From a virus, in the IMG/VR virus record IMGVR_UViG_3300017963_000145, positions 1 to 39,060 of that record: a DNA stretch of 39,060 bases, one strand, 5' to 3'. Position 1 is the stretch's first letter. Each line of letters starts with the position of its first letter. Positions 12,199-37,199 of this stretch are shown here, in pieces. The notes beneath the pieces are model-generated. The model saw nothing but the letters and a program-made list of their open reading frames with translations, was not told the DNA's origin and did no database searches. The translations under genes and the position numbers were made by a program.

Positions 12199-13074
12199 CT
12201 ATTGTTTATTGCTGAACGTCACACATGGTATGCCTTCCTTGCGATATTTGGCAAGTATATCTTCAGTGATGTCATAGTCATTACAAAACTTAACCCAGTC
12301 AATAGTTCCTTTTCTAGAGAAACGTTTCATTTTAATATTGGCATGAGTGAAAAAGCATTTCTTCCCGCCGTGTAGGCTCTTTAGCTTTGTCTCTATATCT
12401 TTTCTTTCCTGAACAATAGATTGCTCGTTAGCCTTTAATTCTGCCCACTTTTCGGCCAATCCATTAGACATAGCATCAGAGATATATTCCTCATCTCGGT
12501 CAGTTGTGTCGGGAGGGGTGTCTTTTACAACGTACTCCCAGAATTCCTTTGCCTTTTTTACCATTGATAGTTGATATTTAACATCAGGATAAACAGGTAT
12601 CATCGTGTGTTCCGAATCGTCAACATATACAAAGTAATCACATCTATCCGCCTTTGTTACCCACAGTTGCCATTGCATTTGGTCATGATAATAGTCAGGA
12701 ATCTTTAGCTCTAAGGCATTTTCATACAGTCTAAAGGATGTAGGGCATTTTATTTCACAGATAACACCAGCGTTTTCAGTAATGCCATCCAGAGAAGCCA
12801 TTGCTACTTCCCATTCTTTAGAGTACATGACTCTTGGGATTAAAGGAATTCCGTGTAATTCAATATATTTTGCTAATGCCACTGGTTCCATGTCAATACC
12901 ACGTTGCATAGCTGGAGTTGTTTTATCTGGACCCTTTTTACCTGTCTTTTCAAGCCATAAGGTGTAAGGGCTTTTCCAGGGGTTTGTTCCATTAATTATA
13001 GAAATGTCGGAACCACCGATGTGGCTCCTTCTGTTTTCAAACCATTCGGGTGATCTCTGGTCAGTTTTATTCAT
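12199..13074 (-). CDS. YqaJ-family recombination exonuclease (291 aa)
   Basis: This is a lambda-exonuclease-like nuclease of the YqaJ family that resects dsDNA ends for single-strand annealing. 'QRSPEWFENRRSHIGGSDIS' at residues 5-24 is the family's start signature ('R...IGGSD'). The PD-(D/E)xK site is visible: E63 in 'RGIDMEPVA', D96 in 'MASLDGI', and E107-I-K109 in 'VICEIKCP'. The C-terminal 90 residues are helical. It overlaps the ERF annealing gene by eight bases and so is translationally coupled to it, the usual exonuclease/annealing-protein pair. It probably serves recombination-dependent replication or end repair in the host cytoplasm. Confidence 0.92.
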   Translation of the reverse strand: MNKTDQRSPEWFENRRSHIGGSDISIINGTNPWKSPYTLWLEKTGKKGPDKTTPAMQRGIDMEPVALAKYIELHGIPLIPRVMYSKEWEVAMASLDGITENAGVICEIKCPTSFRLYENALELKIPDYYHDQMQWQLWVTKADRCDYFVYVDDSEHTMIPVYPDVKYQLSMVKKAKEFWEYVVKDTPPDTTDRDEEYISDAMSNGLAEKWAELKANEQSIVQERKDIETKLKSLHGGKKCFFTHANIKMKRFSRKGTIDWVKFCNDYDITEDILAKYRKEGIPCVTFSNKQ

Positions 13075-13702
13075 GTTCCATCGCCTCTATTTCTTGTTGT
13101 ATTTTTAATTTTAAAGGTCCCAATTTGTCTCTAGTTATATCATATGGAGTTTTAGCTTGAGCGTACTCCAATATTTCTTCTTGCCTATCTTTATCTAACT
13201 TCTTAAGCAGCCTGGCTACTTCTTTAACTTCAGAAGCAATTAGTTCTTTTTTAGGTCTTCTATGCATTGCCGCTTCTCCATCATCATCATCCCCATTAGC
13301 AGTTACTCCAACAATCGAAGCCCAATTATATCTTCTAAGATAAGTTAGGTAACTACCGATGCTTTGTATATCATTTTTAGGCGGGGTTATTGGCATTTTA
13401 GATTCAATCCACTGTCCTGAAGCATGGCATAAGCGGGTGAATAGATACATTTGATTGCTTCCATTACTCAAAACTCTTTGTATAACAGAAAGTCCATTCT
13501 TAGCCAAGTAAGGTCTGCTAGCTTTTACTATTTGAGATAAATCCGCATAATTACTCTTAAAAAAAGGGTTTTTACTAGTAGTTTTAGCTATTTCTATTTC
13601 CCCCTGAGCCTTAGCCAACGCAGTGAATAGTTCTCCTAATTCAGCACTTTCACTTTGTGGTTTTTGTTGTATTACTTTTACTGCTTCTTCTTTGTTTTCC
13701 AT
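13067..13702 (-). CDS. erf: ERF-family single-strand annealing protein (211 aa)
   Basis: The protein shows the ERF signature. 'NPFFKSNYADLSQIVKASRP' lies at residues 45-64 and 'NGLSVIQ' soon after. 'LCHASGQWIESKMPI', 'IQSIGSYLTYLRRYNWASIV' and the acidic 'ANGDDDDGEA' complete it. ERF proteins form rings on ssDNA and anneal complementary strands, as in phage P22 recombination. The length of 211 residues is typical. The C-terminal part is a helical charged tail ('VKEVARLLKKLDKDRQEEIL'). Its partner exonuclease overlaps its 3' end. An AGGAGAA site precedes ATG 13702. Confidence 0.92.
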   Translation of the reverse strand: MENKEEAVKVIQQKPQSESAELGELFTALAKAQGEIEIAKTTSKNPFFKSNYADLSQIVKASRPYLAKNGLSVIQRVLSNGSNQMYLFTRLCHASGQWIESKMPITPPKNDIQSIGSYLTYLRRYNWASIVGVTANGDDDDGEAAMHRRPKKELIASEVKEVARLLKKLDKDRQEEILEYAQAKTPYDITRDKLGPLKLKIQQEIEAMEHE

Positions 13703-15739: not shown

Positions 15740-16267
15740 ATGATATGTCCAGACTGTAAAGCCGAAGTATGTTTTGAATGCGGTTATTGCGATTGTAAGA
15801 AAACACCCGCTGTAATAGTAGATATAGATGGAACTCTTGCTAATATTGATCACAGGAGGCATCTAGTAGAAAAAGATAAAAAAGAGTGGGAAAAATTTAA
15901 ACAAGAAATAATTAATGACAGACCCAATCAATGGTGTAGAATATTATGCTGTTGCATAAGTGCGCCTCCAATCGCCACATATGACCCAATTCATATATTA
16001 TTTGTTACAGGTAGAGAAAAAAAATACAAACCGATTACTGAACTTCAAATCAAAGATTGGATTGATCCTGATTATTACTGTTTATTCACTAGAAAAGACA
16101 ATGACTTTAGACAAGACACTGAAATAAAAAGAGAAATTTATCAAGAAAAGATAAAGGATAGGTATAACATTATATTTGCCATAGACGACAATGCAGAAAT
16201 TGTTGAGTTATGGAGGTCACTTGGCATAGCCACGCTAGATTGCGCAGGATATAAAAGAAATAGTTAA
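15740..16267 (+). CDS. HAD-family polynucleotide 3'-phosphatase-like protein (175 aa)
   Basis: Residues 3-19 form a Cys-rich zinc knuckle ('CPDCKAEVCFECGYCDC'). Then comes a HAD phosphatase with motif I 'VDIDGTLANIDHRRH' (D28 and D30), motif II 'ILFVTGRE', and motif IV 'FAIDDNAEIVELWRSLGI'. The order and the 'DIDGTLAN-DHRR' wording match the 3'-phosphatase domain of T4 polynucleotide kinase. The kinase half is absent, so it would clean up 3' phosphates on nicked DNA or RNA without the 5'-kinase step. The N-terminal zinc module is unusual and may bind nucleic acid. Ribosome binding site: AAGGAG. Confidence 0.8.
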   Translation: MICPDCKAEVCFECGYCDCKKTPAVIVDIDGTLANIDHRRHLVEKDKKEWEKFKQEIINDRPNQWCRILCCCISAPPIATYDPIHILFVTGREKKYKPITELQIKDWIDPDYYCLFTRKDNDFRQDTEIKREIYQEKIKDRYNIIFAIDDNAEIVELWRSLGIATLDCAGYKRNS

Positions 16268-16814: not shown

Positions 16815-17093
16815 ATGAAAATGGAATGGATTCCAATATACACTCCAGAAGGAGAAGAAGACATTGTTCCTGACGAGGAGGATTATGATCTACTACTTTT
16901 TTTAGTAGATGAATGGCCTCATTTAGGATGGATATCCACAGCACATGAGTCCAAAGTTAGAAAATGGAACTGGTATTCTTTTTCAACACAAGAATCTCAC
17001 AAAACATTTGACGCTGACATTTCTACTGATATTGAATTAAGAGTTACACATTGGTGTAGAATTCCAAAAATACCTGATAATGATAAAAAATAA
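16815..17093 (+). CDS. DUF551-like small protein (92 aa)
   Basis: The 92-residue protein fits the DUF551 layout: 'EWIPIYTPEGEEDIVPDEED' at the start, a central strand region, and the closing 'RVTHWCRIPKIPD', which matches the family's 'VTHWMPLP-P' ending. The family is common in phages and has no known function. An insert 'YDLLLFLVDEWPHLGW' makes it slightly longer than usual. The stop codon directly abuts the TerL ATG. The ribosome binding site is weak. The ATG at 16821 is an alternative start. Confidence 0.65.
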   Translation: MKMEWIPIYTPEGEEDIVPDEEDYDLLLFLVDEWPHLGWISTAHESKVRKWNWYSFSTQESHKTFDADISTDIELRVTHWCRIPKIPDNDKK

Positions 17094-19310
17094 ATGCTAG
17101 ATCTCAGTCCTAAACAACAAATATCTCTTAATGAATCTAATGCACGTATAAATATATGGGAAGGAGCTGTTCGTTCAGGCAAATCATATTCTAGTCTAAT
17201 AAGATGGTTAGAATATATTCAAGAAGCTCCGCCTGGAAACTTAGTTATGGTTGGAAGAACAGCTACAACCATAAAGCATAACCTTGTAGATGAGATATGC
17301 AATCTTTTAGGAACAGACGCTAGGTATTATTCAGGAAAGAATGAACTGAACCTTTGGGGAAAGAGAATATATTTAGTAGGCGCTTCAGATGCGAGGAGTG
17401 AACAAAAGATACGGGGAGCTACTTTCTCTGGTGCTTACGTAGATGAGGCTACTCTTATACCAGAAGCTTTCTGGACTATGCTACTATCTAGGCTTTCAGT
17501 TCCCAATTCTAAGATATTCACCACAACAAACCCTGATTCACCTTTTCATTGGCTCAAAAAGAACTACATAGACAGGATAGATGAACTAGACATGAAGAGA
17601 TGGAAGTTTTATTTAGAAGACAACCCCTCTCTTTCTGAAGAATTTAAAATCTCCCTAAAACAAGAATACCGTGGATTATGGTATAGAAGGTATATAGACG
17701 GCGAATGGTGTCTCGCTGAAGGAACTATCTATGACTTCTTTGATGAGGCTATTCATTGCATAGACTTTCCTCCAGGACAAGGAAAAGAATATTATGTTGG
17801 GATAGACTATGGTACAACAAATCCGTGTGCTTTTGTTTTGTTAGGTTACAACCCAATGAATTATCCAAATATGTGGGTAGAAAAAGAGTATTACTATGAT
17901 AGCGCTAAGCACAGTAGGCAGAAAACAGATACAGAATACGCACAAGATCTAGCGAAGTTTATAGAAGGAATTCCAATATCTGGGATATATGTTGATCCAG
18001 CCGCTGCTTCTTTTAAATTAGAATGCAGTAGGCAAAGCATCCGTAACGTTTTTGATGCTAATAATGATGTGTTGGATGGAATAAGATTTGTAGCAGGTTT
18101 ATTTACTAACGGAACTCTTAAGATATGCAAAAGTTGTCGTAATTTAATAAGAGAGATGGGAGCCTATGTTTGGGATCCTAAAAGCAAAGATTTAGGGGTA
18201 GATAAACCATTAAAAGCTAATGATCATTGTTTTAGTGAAGGAACGCCAATTGCTACACATTTTGGCCAAAGACCAATCGAGCGAGTGATGATAGGAGATA
18301 TGGTTTTAACACCAATAGGTTATAAATATGTGATAGAAACTTTTGAAAATGAATCTGAAGTATATGAGTATGAGGTTTTAGGTCAAAAAATAAAATGTAC
18401 TCCAAATCACAAATTTTTCACAATTAATGGTTGGAAAGAAGCCCGAAGCTTGATACAATCAGATATGTTTCTAATCAAAACAACGGGTGAAACATGTCTG
18501 AGGAAATCATCATATTTAACGGAATCAAGTACAGACGGTACTTATCCTCCAAGAATCTTTCCGATAGAAGATATTTCAGAGCACATAAAGCAGATTGCCT
18601 TAAAGGATGCGGCTATCTCCATCGAGATGTATGGAAATTCTATCATGGAGAAATACCCACAGGATGTCATATTCATCACATCGATGGAAATACCGCGAAC
18701 AATGACATTAGCAACCTCAAGCATATATCAGCTAGCGAGCACTTATCCAAACATATGGCAAATCGTTCAAAAGAACAAATTGAAGCTGCAAGAGTTCATT
18801 GCGAAGAAATTAGACCGCTTACAAAAAAATGGCACAGATCAGAAGAAGGAAGAGAATGGCATAAAGAACACGGAATTAAAGCATATAAAAAAAGAAAACC
18901 AAAGAAATATAAATGTAAGCAATGCAATAAAGAATTCAAATCAACAAAATACACAAACACAAAATTTTGTTCAAATAACTGTAAATCACAATGGCGTAGA
19001 GACAATAAAATTGATGATGAGACAAGAATATGTCCGATATGTAGTAAAGAATATAGAATTAATAAATACTCAAAAGCAAAAACATGTTCAAAGAGTTGCG
19101 GAATCATTCATAGGAAAACAAAAAGTTTATAATCTGCACGTTGAAGATATGAATGTATATTATGCTAATGACATTTTAGTTTTAAACTGCAACGATAGTT
19201 TACGCTATTGCCTCCACACAGTATTTGGGCAAACATTAGGAAATCAAGATAGAATGACAAAAGAAAAGCTTGACTCTTTAAAGCGAAAAGTTCAATCTGA
19301 ATGGTATTAG
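17094..19310 (+). CDS. Terminase large subunit interrupted by an intein (738 aa; 418 aa spliced)
   Basis: The precursor has 738 residues. The ATPase domain shows Walker A 'EGAVRSGKS' (residues 23-31) and Walker B 'GAYVDEAT' (around 113-120). The nuclease domain has D in 'VGIDYGTTNP' (around 237) and D in 'YVDPAAAS' (around 300). The third acidic motif, canonically 'NDH..D.LRY', is split by an intein between 'KANDH' and 'CNDSLRY'. Splicing restores it and gives 418 residues, a normal TerL length. The enzyme translocates DNA into the prohead and cuts it at headful or site-specific ends. The start directly follows the previous stop. Without splicing the nuclease centre would be broken, so production of active terminase depends on the intein. 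Confidence 0.92.
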   Translation: MLDLSPKQQISLNESNARINIWEGAVRSGKSYSSLIRWLEYIQEAPPGNLVMVGRTATTIKHNLVDEICNLLGTDARYYSGKNELNLWGKRIYLVGASDARSEQKIRGATFSGAYVDEATLIPEAFWTMLLSRLSVPNSKIFTTTNPDSPFHWLKKNYIDRIDELDMKRWKFYLEDNPSLSEEFKISLKQEYRGLWYRRYIDGEWCLAEGTIYDFFDEAIHCIDFPPGQGKEYYVGIDYGTTNPCAFVLLGYNPMNYPNMWVEKEYYYDSAKHSRQKTDTEYAQDLAKFIEGIPISGIYVDPAAASFKLECSRQSIRNVFDANNDVLDGIRFVAGLFTNGTLKICKSCRNLIREMGAYVWDPKSKDLGVDKPLKANDHCFSEGTPIATHFGQRPIERVMIGDMVLTPIGYKYVIETFENESEVYEYEVLGQKIKCTPNHKFFTINGWKEARSLIQSDMFLIKTTGETCLRKSSYLTESSTDGTYPPRIFPIEDISEHIKQIALKDAAISIEMYGNSIMEKYPQDVIFITSMEIPRTMTLATSSIYQLASTYPNIWQIVQKNKLKLQEFIAKKLDRLQKNGTDQKKEENGIKNTELKHIKKENQRNINVSNAIKNSNQQNTQTQNFVQITVNHNGVETIKLMMRQEYVRYVVKNIELINTQKQKHVQRVAESFIGKQKVYNLHVEDMNVYYANDILVLNCNDSLRYCLHTVFGQTLGNQDRMTKEKLDSLKRKVQSEWY
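18228..19187 (+). mobile_element. Intein in the TerL nuclease motif (320 aa)
   Basis: The intein runs from Cys1 ('CFSEGTPIATHFGQRPIERV', block A with 'IGDMVLTP') through block B ('CTPNHKFFTINGWKEA', with the TxxH pattern) to blocks F/G ('VYNLHVEDMNVYYANDILVL' then Asn). Cys is the +1 residue. The penultimate residue is Leu where most inteins have His, and block F has Asn/Val where His is common. The splice may thus depend on other residues or be slow. Between blocks B and F, some 210 residues in this frame are low-complexity Asn/Gln/Lys sequence. They are the shadow of an HNH gene encoded in another frame. No endonuclease domain exists in the intein's own frame. Confidence 0.88.
18494..19132 (+). 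CDS. HNH homing endonuclease nested out of frame in the intein (212 aa)
   Basis: This complete gene lies wholly inside the intein but in a different reading frame (ATG 18494, TAA 19130). A TGA sits two codons upstream in its frame, so it must initiate on its own. GGGTGA a few bases before the ATG is a weak ribosome binding site. The product has the HNH core 'CHIHHIDGNTANNDISNLKH' (residues 58-77), preceded by 'CGYLHRDVWKFYHGEIP'. Two zinc-finger-like Cys modules follow: 'YKCKQCNKEFKS'...'FCSNNCKSQW' and 'RICPICSKEYRI'...'TCSKSCGIIH'. This is a complete free-standing HNH design. It presumably cuts intein-less TerL genes and drives homing of the intein. Confidence 0.85.
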   Translation: MSEEIIIFNGIKYRRYLSSKNLSDRRYFRAHKADCLKGCGYLHRDVWKFYHGEIPTGCHIHHIDGNTANNDISNLKHISASEHLSKHMANRSKEQIEAARVHCEEIRPLTKKWHRSEEGREWHKEHGIKAYKKRKPKKYKCKQCNKEFKSTKYTNTKFCSNNCKSQWRRDNKIDDETRICPICSKEYRINKYSKAKTCSKSCGIIHRKTKSL

Positions 19311-19325
19311 ATTAAGGAAAAAGCC

Positions 19326-19445
19326 ATGGGAACAAAAAAAATAAAGCACGATATTTTCCAAGCATTTATGATTTATTATCATATATTTGCTTATATATTT
19401 ACCGCTGGAGTTTTAATATGGCTTTCAATAAAGTCTTACTTCTAG
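19326..19445 (+). CDS. Small membrane peptide after terminase (39 aa)
   Basis: ATG 19326 follows AAGGAAAAAGCC just after the TerL stop. The 39-residue product is basic at the N-terminus ('MGTKKIKHDIFQAFMIYYHI') and then has a membrane segment ('FAYIFTAGVLIWLSI'). The end overlaps the next gene by 28 bases. A holin-like or membrane accessory role is possible, but no family is recognised. Confidence 0.55.
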   Translation: MGTKKIKHDIFQAFMIYYHIFAYIFTAGVLIWLSIKSYF

Positions 19446-19747
19446 CTGGTATTTGGGGAATGAGTATGTCCTCCCCTATCGATGTAAAAAAAGAAGACAC
19501 CAAAACAAATCCAAAACAAATACTTGAGGAAACTAAAATGAAGTCGAAGCTCAGAAAGTCCCTAACATCTGCATTATTTTTAACGGCAACAACATTTCCA
19601 TTAAACATGTTTGCATCGTGGATAAGTATCACACCTCACCCAATAGATATTCACATAATAACGCCTGATGAGTATGAAGATGTATTTGAACCAGAATCTG
19701 ATAAGTCATTGAGAGAGATGCGTAGAAATAATAATGAGGAGGATTAA
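19418..19747 (+). CDS. Hypothetical exported protein with possible second start (109 or 70 aa)
   Basis: From ATG 19418 (GGAG seven bases upstream) the 109-residue product begins 'MAFNKVLLLAGIWGMSMSSP'. An internal ATG at 19538 has its own GAGGA site eight bases upstream. It opens with 'MKSKLRKSLTSALFLTATTF' followed by 'PLNMFASW', a convincing signal peptide. The tail is acidic ('ITPDEYEDVFEPESDKSLRE'). Either two proteins are made from one frame, or the true gene is the shorter one. The position after TerL and the exported C-terminal part leave room for a lysis or host-surface role, but nothing specific can be named. Confidence 0.55.
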   Translation: MAFNKVLLLAGIWGMSMSSPIDVKKEDTKTNPKQILEETKMKSKLRKSLTSALFLTATTFPLNMFASWISITPHPIDIHIITPDEYEDVFEPESDKSLREMRRNNNEED

Positions 19748-36452: not shown

Positions 36453-37199
36453 TTATTTGAGCTTCTTTAAATCCTCATGGAGCTCTTTTCCAGTAGCAAC
36501 TCCTTTTTTAATGATAATATTTACTTCTTTTTCATCAATATTATTATTTAACAATGTATTTGTTAATAAAGTAATTACAGAATCAGCAAATTTTTTTAGA
36601 GAATAGATGTCCCTATATTTATCTTCTAATGCCATAATATCATTCCATAACTCATCTTTTATATTTCTAACCATTGGTGTCCCCTTTGTTTTTTTACGGA
36701 TTTGAATTGTATGCCGTCCTTTTTTTATTGCATCTTGGTGATTGTCTTTATGAGTTCCCAAAAATAGATGTTGTGGGTTACAACACGATCTCACGTCGCA
36801 TGTGTGACATACTAGAAGCCCCTCTGGTATTTCGCCATTGAATAGTTGGTAAGACAAACGATGAGCCGAAACTCTTCTTTTAACAGATGAATTTCTTAAT
36901 CTCCCGTACCCATTTCTTTCTATGTAAAAAGGCCAAATTTTACAGCCATTTTTATCTGGTTTAATATTATTAATAATCTCAATAAACTTCTTGTCAGATA
37001 TTTTTTGGTGACAACCGCAAGATATAACCCTTTTTTCTACTAGATGATCTCTTCTGACTAATTTTTTTTCACCACATTCACATTGGCATTCCCAAAAGTA
37101 TTGATACAATTTTCCAGTTTTTTTGATGTGTGAAAATTTTAATACAGTTAGTTTCCCACTTTTTAATCCAGTAAGATCTTTAATTTCACCTTTTTTCAT
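36453..37199 (-). CDS. Free-standing HNH endonuclease (248 aa)
   Basis: The N-terminus is a zinc-binding module with 'YFWECQCECGEKKLVRRDHL' and 'VISCGCHQK' (C38, C40, C42, C61, C63), preceded by 'DLTGLKSGKLTVL', as in AP2/NUMOD-type phage HNH proteins. The HNH core follows as 'AHRLSYQLFNGEIPEG', 'LLVCHTCDVRSCCNPQHLFL' and 'GTHKDNHQDAIKKGRH'. The last 70 residues are helical and may bind DNA. It is not inside an intron or intein, so it probably homes into the intergenic region near the spike gene. Its start overlaps the end of the ribbon-helix-helix gene. Confidence 0.88.
   Translation of the reverse strand: MKKGEIKDLTGLKSGKLTVLKFSHIKKTGKLYQYFWECQCECGEKKLVRRDHLVEKRVISCGCHQKISDKKFIEIINNIKPDKNGCKIWPFYIERNGYGRLRNSSVKRRVSAHRLSYQLFNGEIPEGLLVCHTCDVRSCCNPQHLFLGTHKDNHQDAIKKGRHTIQIRKKTKGTPMVRNIKDELWNDIMALEDKYRDIYSLKKFADSVITLLTNTLLNNNIDEKEVNIIIKKGVATGKELHEDLKKLK

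What the first reader, a model, noticed from the sequence alone, without database searches (positions are those of the whole stretch)
18228..19187. TerL intein whose HNH endonuclease is a separate gene in a different reading frame
Seen: intein blocks A, B, F and G lie in the TerL frame, while a complete 212-residue HNH protein lies in another frame between them (18494-19132), with its own ATG and an upstream in-frame TGA. The TerL frame stays open for about 210 codons through the HNH gene, although the sequence is AT-rich and the encoded linker is low-complexity. Known: homing endonucleases of inteins are normally fused in frame. Inference: an HNH gene invaded a mini-intein out of frame, and both frames must now be kept open, so the essential terminase precursor and a free nuclease come from the same DNA. 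I do not know of a described case of this arrangement.
Basis: partly seen in the sequence, partly recalled or inferred. Interest (0 to 1): 0.92.

Follow-up and report, generated by a model that had tools for sequence, protein, structure and literature searches.

The report
Out-of-frame nuclease gene inside terminase intein
A phage's DNA-packaging gene carries a self-splicing protein insert, and the same stretch of DNA, read in another frame, encodes a complete DNA-cutting enzyme that probably spreads the insert; the double-coded parasite occurs in phages of many different hosts, but print sources I could read mention it in only one passage.

Summary
TerL (17094-19310) holds an intein (18228-19187). 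A complete HNH endonuclease gene (18494-19132) lies inside it, out of frame, and both frames are open. This is not an assembly error: 71 loci (61 distinct HNH DNAs), plus seven contigs of bacterial and archaeal genome assemblies, show the same design, always with the same frame offset. Where intein N and C blocks share a frame, 71 of 72 loci have no stop between them. Free or split-intein relatives of the same HNH have 3-12 stops in that frame. HNH codons that would create a TerL stop occur 0/822 times nested, against 105/255 free. Synonymous sites of the HNH are suppressed (30% differ, against 45-57% outside the overlap). Intein-bearing and intein-less alleles of near-identical phages show a co-conversion footprint, as homing would leave. 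The composite also sits in unrelated terminases. Best reading: a mini-intein splices out of TerL while a separately initiated HNH nuclease drives mobility. Splicing and cleavage are inferred. Novelty is limited: a 2015 brucellaphage paper mentions the arrangement in one passage, and the 2025 'ShiLan' paper describes out-of-frame HNHs without an intein. New here: breadth, two-frame selection, homing footprint.

The parts
17094..18227 (+). TerL N-extein (378 aa), ending ...LKANDH
   Evidence: TIGR01547 PBSX-family TerL 1e-46; PF03237 3.8e-19; 76-82% identical to the N-exteins of intein-bearing and intein-less relatives
18228..18476 (+). Intein N-terminal splicing half (Cys1, TxxH of block B)
   Evidence: PF14890; AF2 pLDDT above 90 for about the first 80 residues; Hint fold matches gp41-1 intein 6qaz E 6e-6
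18477..19112 (+). Linker of the intein in the TerL frame: shadow translation of the HNH gene, predicted mostly disordered
   Evidence: AF2 pLDDT below 50 for most of residues 87-287; no TerL-frame stop; synonymous sites of the HNH suppressed here
19113..19187 (+). Intein C-terminal splicing half (blocks F, G; Asn320)
   Evidence: PF14890, TIGR01443; intein-C HMM 1.8e-14
19188..19310 (+). TerL C-extein, CNDSLRY... (Cys+1; the DxxRY motif is rejoined by splicing)
   Evidence: intein-less homologues read NDH-A/L-QDALRY at the same place
18494..19132 (+). Nested HNH homing endonuclease gene, 212 aa, -1 frame relative to TerL
   Evidence: PF13392 2.4e-14; phrog_15471 HNH endonuclease 2e-40; AF2 mean pLDDT 95.8
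18485..18490 (+). GGGTGA: Shine-Dalgarno-like sequence 3 nt before the HNH ATG
   Evidence: sequence; SD matches of 5 nt or more precede 40% of nested HNH starts, 12% of shuffled upstreams, 5% of internal ATGs
18614..18742 (+). HNH_3 catalytic domain (HNH residues 41-83; conserved H61 H62 N69 N70 N74 H83)
18914..19099 (+). Two C-terminal CxxC...CxxxC zinc-finger-like motifs of the HNH protein
   Evidence: C141 C144 C159 C163 and C180 C183 C198 C202 invariant in 39 sequences

Best explanation
It is a mobile composite element with two gene products from one stretch of DNA. (1) In the TerL frame a class-1-type intein is translated with the terminase. Its Hint domain (about residues 1-84 plus 290-320) excises itself and rejoins the TerL motif NDH-CNDSLRY; the 200-residue middle is a disordered loop that has to be translatable and harmless. 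(2) In the -1 frame, ribosomes initiate internally at ATG 18494 and make a free 212-aa HNH endonuclease with two zinc-finger-like motifs. (3) The nuclease cuts intein-less terL alleles at or near the insertion site, and repair copies the whole composite with flanking sequence. Shown by computation: both reading frames, selection on both, co-movement of both parts, the filled/empty allele pair with its co-conversion footprint, and start-site signals. Inferred: splicing, internal initiation, and cleavage and its specificity.
For: 71 loci (61 distinct HNH DNAs) have the same nesting and the same frame offset. Of 72 loci with intein N and C blocks in one frame, 71 have no stop between them. Seven more intact copies lie in MAG contigs. 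Free or split relatives have 3-12 stops in that frame inside the HNH and match codon permutation; the nested set has 0 against 158 expected. NTA codons before A/G: 0/822 nested, 105/255 free or split. Synonymous differences at identical residues: HNH overlap 30%, intein N block 45%, TerL N-extein 57%; Fisher p about 5e-6 for window/L005; the suppression holds in codon classes that cannot make stops. At 60-70% HNH identity, 0.33 nested against 0.56 free. Homing footprint: L006 (filled) and L008/L009 (empty) are 91-100% identical along the terL N-extein, but 57% in the 54 nt before the site and 85% in the 27 nt after. Composite moves whole: window and L025 share about 64% HNH and 64% intein identity, but only about 16% TerL N-extein identity. 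SD signals. Structures.
Against: No experiment shows splicing, HNH translation or cleavage. The penultimate intein residue in the window is Leu, not the usual His (S, L, K also occur in relatives). Foldseek's best solved match to the HNH model is I-HmuI (1u3e), but at E 0.25, so the assignment rests on sequence profiles. Five of 61 nested HNHs have no start codon near the expected position, and SD signals are weak in some. Kala et al. (as cited in PMC4422536) assign HNH proteins a packaging role, which could also explain an HNH next to terL.
Confidence: 0.83

Rival explanations
1. The HNH protein is a packaging co-factor of the terminase (the HNH-TerL partnership of Kala et al.), domesticated by the phage, and the overlap only guarantees co-expression; mobility is secondary or past.
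For: HNH genes commonly lie next to terS/terL, including relatives of this one; the HNH protein is well conserved.
Against: Close relatives with 97% identical TerL lack intein and HNH at this site altogether (L006 against L008/L009), so it is dispensable there. In the nested set HNH and intein distances go together, and the element sits beside a co-conversion tract. HNH frames with stops occur while TerL stays open (L032, L118, L125).
Confidence: 0.1
2. The nuclease is not made from its own start but by -1 ribosomal frameshifting from the TerL frame, giving an intein-N/HNH fusion.
For: The frame relation is always -1, the direction of common programmed frameshifting.
Against: Slippery heptamers occur near the HNH start in only 10 of 55 loci; HNH starts are preceded by SD-like sequences well above background; in the window a TGA closes the HNH frame one codon before its ATG. 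The frame bias has a simpler cause: in unconstrained relatives the +1 frame of HNH genes has far fewer stops than the other alternative frame.
Confidence: 0.04
3. Sequencing or assembly artefact: two compensating indels hide a normal in-frame intein endonuclease.
For: None found.
Against: 61 distinct copies from many samples, including named phages (TJE1, Highwayman, LS06-2018-MD07), all with the same offset. The TerL frame shows its own codon-level selection across the overlap.
Confidence: 0.01

Closest known systems
[quoted passage not shown]
   Same: Same host gene, out-of-frame HNH, intein named by the authors
   Different: Stated as putative, without tests of splicing motifs, homologues, selection or mobility in the passage read; the records are not in the collections, so I could not compare sequences
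ShiLan-type hidden HNH in phage DNA methylases (PMC11855218, 2025)
   Same: HNH with zinc fingers nested out of frame in an open host ORF; its stated start (bases 18-20 of the insertion) implies the same -1 offset; patchy, homing-like distribution
   Different: No intein or intron there: the shadow translation is thought to stay in the host protein; here a Hint domain would remove it from an essential protein
Canonical homing inteins (PI-SceI; HNH inteins such as that of Dalgaard 1997)
   Same: Hint domain, endonuclease inserted between blocks B and F, homing into an intein-less allele
   Different: The endonuclease is a separate overlapping gene, not an in-frame domain of the intein; no in-frame member was seen among the loci of this HNH family examined
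Split inteins with a free-standing endonuclease between the halves ('fractured genes', Dassa 2009; known to me by citation and memory)
   Same: A free nuclease gene lies between intein halves; the same HNH family does exactly this in Bacillota phages and contigs (L021 CL2, L075, L109)
   Different: There TerL is made as two proteins and the HNH region is free of TerL-frame constraint; here the precursor is one chain read across the HNH gene
I-HmuI and other HNH_3 homing endonucleases
   Same: HNH_3 profile match; I-HmuI is the top solved structure by Foldseek
   Different: Foldseek E 0.25 only; I-HmuI sits in a group I intron (own knowledge); no Rfam match here

Membership tests
Intein (Hint protein-splicing element) | N-terminal Cys/Ser, block B TxxH, C-terminal Asn followed by Cys/Ser/Thr | tested here: met
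   C1, T58-P-N-H61, N320, Cys+1; C1, T58, H61, N320 invariant in 39 sequences
Intein (Hint protein-splicing element) | Hint fold | tested here: met
   AF2 pLDDT above 90 at both ends, Foldseek 6qaz E 6e-6
Intein (Hint protein-splicing element) | Catalyses its own excision | not testable with these tools
   needs expression of the precursor
Intein (Hint protein-splicing element) | Precise absence from some homologues of the host gene | tested here: met
   L008-L012 are empty at the same codon
Canonical endonuclease-containing intein | Endonuclease domain in frame between blocks B and F | tested here: not met
   HNH is in the -1 frame in the window and in all 71 nested loci
HNH_3 homing endonuclease | Conserved HNH catalytic residues | tested here: met
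   PF13392 2.4e-14; H61 H62 N69 N70 N74 H83 invariant
HNH_3 homing endonuclease | Gene lies within the element that moves and leaves a homing footprint | tested here: met
   filled/empty pair with co-conversion, L006 and L008/L009
HNH_3 homing endonuclease | Site-specific cleavage of the empty allele | not testable with these tools
   needs purified protein and substrate DNA
ShiLan-type hidden HNH | HNH out of frame in an open host ORF | tested here: met
ShiLan-type hidden HNH | Insertion lacks a self-splicing domain | tested here: not met
   Intein_splicing PF14890 2.4e-11
Split intein with intervening endonuclease | Intein halves on separate polypeptides | tested here: not met
   One 738-codon ORF with no stop; split relatives do have stops
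Overlapping gene pair under dual selection | Stop avoidance in both frames and reduced synonymous divergence in the overlap | tested here: met

The most novel reading that the evidence does not exclude
The overlap is an entrenchment device: because an HNH-disabling indel that is not a multiple of three also destroys the essential terminase precursor, the endonuclease is shielded from the frameshift decay that normally ends a homing endonuclease's life cycle, and the linker of the precursor is itself under amino-acid selection. Homing endonucleases that overlap an essential splicing precursor would then be a distinct, long-lived class of selfish gene.
Probability: 0.3. Interest if true: 0.78.

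Novelty: new variant of a known kind. Interest (0 to 1): 0.62.

Why it matters
Textbook inteins carry their endonuclease in frame. In this HNH family the rule is broken: of the best 80 relatives fetched in one scan, 63 are nested out of frame in a contiguous TerL intein, and none is fused in frame. The family also occurs between the halves of split TerL inteins, so nested, split and free forms can be compared in one gene family, which makes the origin of split inteins and of overlapping genes testable. It also warns annotators: one PHROG of unknown function (phrog_35162) matches the shadow translation of the nuclease, and in several named phages only TerL is annotated at the locus.

Tried and rejected
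Group I intron: no Rfam match in 17000-19500, and the TerL frame is open. Assembly artefact: rejected by homologues. -1 frameshift: slippery heptamers in only 10 of 55 loci. Brucellaphage comparison: NC_019446, JN939331 and KJ133688 are not in the collection; JF939047, tried from memory, is an unrelated Burkholderia phage. Papers by Gorbalenya 1998 and Gosselin 2025 (bioRxiv), cited for unusual inteins and overlapping frames, are not held, so they may hold further prior art. A first codon-choice test used the wrong stop-forming context (T-ending codons) and was replaced. A first SD test could favour good SDs when choosing the start; one search chose starts blind to the SD. 'Nested' was defined partly by zero stops; independent of that, 71 of 72 loci with both intein blocks in one frame have none. 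Single against multiple origin of nesting: the HNH tree (quick method, 40 of 90 inner branches open) does not decide it.

Full report
What is there. TerL runs from 17094 to 19310 as one 738-codon frame, and a 212-codon HNH gene (18494-19132) lies inside it in the -1 frame. Pfam finds the intein splicing domain in the TerL frame (PF14890, 2.4e-11) and HNH_3 in the other (PF13392, 2.4e-14). The intein starts with Cys1 at 18228 and ends with Asn320 at 19187; the extein resumes with Cys+1. In intein-less relatives the motif reads NDH-A/L-QDALRY without a break, so the intein splits a conserved TerL motif that I take, from knowledge of TerL nucleases, to be part of the nuclease active site.

More than chance. 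With this phage's own codon usage the same HNH protein would put nine stops into the TerL frame on average, and none of 20,000 re-encodings had zero. In the other direction, re-encoding the TerL linker gives 14.5 stops in the HNH frame, again never zero. Ile, Leu or Val codons of the form NTA followed by A or G, which would write a TerL stop, occur 0 times in 822 chances across nested copies and 105 times in 255 in free or split relatives.

How widespread. tblastn of the first loci showed four close homologues with the same design. A search with an HNH alignment found 524 relatives in viral contigs and returned the best 80. Profiles for the intein N block, intein C block and HNH then classified all fetched loci. 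In 71 loci (61 distinct HNH DNAs; 63 of the 80) the HNH is nested in a contiguous TerL intein, always at the same offset, without a TerL-frame stop, and none is fused in frame. Named examples are Tetrasphaera phage TJE1, Acinetobacter phage Highwayman and Rhodobacteraceae phage LS06-2018-MD07, where the annotation under the HNH shows only terL; a human gut contig, MT838676, is another. Seven MAG contigs add copies under the names Bacteroides, Thermoplasmatales, Acidobacteria, Opitutae, Berkelbacteria, Rhodobacteraceae and one unclassified bacterium; binned contigs do not prove a host.

Natural control. The same HNH family also occurs as a free gene between the halves of split TerL inteins in Bacillota phages and contigs (CL2, L109, L110, L112, L113) and in viral contigs of the same HNH clade (L062, L075, L084, L086), and as a free gene near the terminase genes. 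There, stops in the frame corresponding to TerL are at the level expected from codon permutation (3-12 inside the HNH), while the nested set has 0 against 158 expected.

Selection on both frames. Where two sequences share the HNH amino acid, their codons differ at 30% of sites in the overlap, against 45% in the intein N block of the same elements and 57% in the TerL N-extein (Fisher p about 5e-6 for window against L005; pairs are not independent, so single-pair tests are given). The effect is present in codon classes that cannot create stops (0.28 against 0.45, and 0.35 against 0.67), so the TerL-frame linker is probably constrained beyond stop avoidance. At equal HNH divergence, free or split copies do not show it (0.56 against 0.33). 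L007 carries a third zinc-finger-like unit, which lengthens both frames by a multiple of three.

Mobility. L006 carries the element, L008 and L009 do not; along the terL N-extein they are 91-100% identical, except 57% in the 54 nt just before the site; the 27 nt after the site are 85% identical, with Ala+1 changed to Cys+1. That is what repair with co-conversion leaves. Window and L025 share 64% of HNH and intein residues but only 16% of the TerL N-extein, so the composite moves whole between unrelated terminases. Copies with stops in the HNH frame but an open TerL frame exist (L031, L032, L060, L096, of which only L032 is interrupted inside the catalytic part; L118, L125), as expected for decaying homing endonucleases.

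How it probably works. AlphaFold2 predicts a confident Hint domain at both ends of the intein and mostly disorder between residues 87 and 287; the Hint part matches gp41-1. The HNH protein is predicted with pLDDT 95.8; its best solved match is I-HmuI, at a weak E of 0.25. SD-like sequences of at least 5 nt precede 40% of nested HNH starts, 12% of shuffled upstreams and 5% of internal ATGs. I therefore propose internal initiation of a free nuclease, self-excision of the precursor intein, and homing of the composite. Splicing, translation and cleavage have not been tested. The constant -1 frame needs no special mechanism: in unconstrained relatives that frame has the fewest stops, and a methylase-embedded HNH in L012 shows the same offset.

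What is known. PMC4422536 (2015) says in one passage that brucellaphages have a putative intein-encoded HNH gene out of frame in the large terminase gene. PMC11855218 (2025) describes out-of-frame HNHs in phage methylases and finds no intein there. I could not read Gorbalenya 1998 or Gosselin 2025. So noticing the arrangement is not new. The breadth, the dual selection, the link to split inteins and the homing footprint are, as far as I could search, not in print. I rate it a variant of the homing intein rather than a canonical member, because the defining in-frame endonuclease was tested and not met.

Noticed in passing
L012:679-2241 and 1527-1964: An intein-less relative of this phage carries a 145-aa HNH out of frame inside a DNA methylase ORF, a ShiLan-like insertion with the same -1 offset.
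   Followed up: partly
L021:506-2774; also L062, L075, L084, L086, L109, L110, L112, L113: Split TerL intein with the same HNH family as a free gene between the halves; in Lactobacillus phage CL2 an unannotated 94-aa ORF (2490-2774) holds intein-C plus the TerL tail.
   Followed up: partly
L104 (Vibrio phage 1.245.O): TerL intein N half, then an HNH ORF in another frame, then an ORF annotated as hedgehog/hint that holds intein C and the TerL tail.
   Followed up: no
window 18627-19235 (TerL residues 512-714): PHROG 35162, 'unknown function', matches the TerL-frame shadow of the HNH gene at 1.8e-9, so a protein family in the database appears to be built on a shadow translation.
   Followed up: no
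L114:2505-4778: In a Spirosoma contig the HNH follows terL inside an ORF that ends in a near-copy of the TerL C-terminus (GDCFRYALVNFEYSTYKQI): possibly insertion with regeneration of the gene end.
   Followed up: no
L126 (archaeal virus vir335), L128 (Microcystis phage Mic1): Mini-inteins without endonuclease at the same TerL site: possible ancestors, or derivatives that lost the HNH.
   Followed up: no
L019:727-2607 (Brochothrix phage BL3): TerL intein with a truncated HNH; the TerL frame ends inside it and intein C lies further on: looks like a decayed or transitional form.
   Followed up: no
window 36453-37199, - strand: A second, free-standing HNH_3 endonuclease gene.
   Followed up: no
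window 12199-13702, - strand; 15740-16267, + strand: YqaJ/RecE-like exonuclease and Erf annealing protein next to each other, which could serve the repair that homing needs; a PNKP-type phosphatase at 15740.
   Followed up: no
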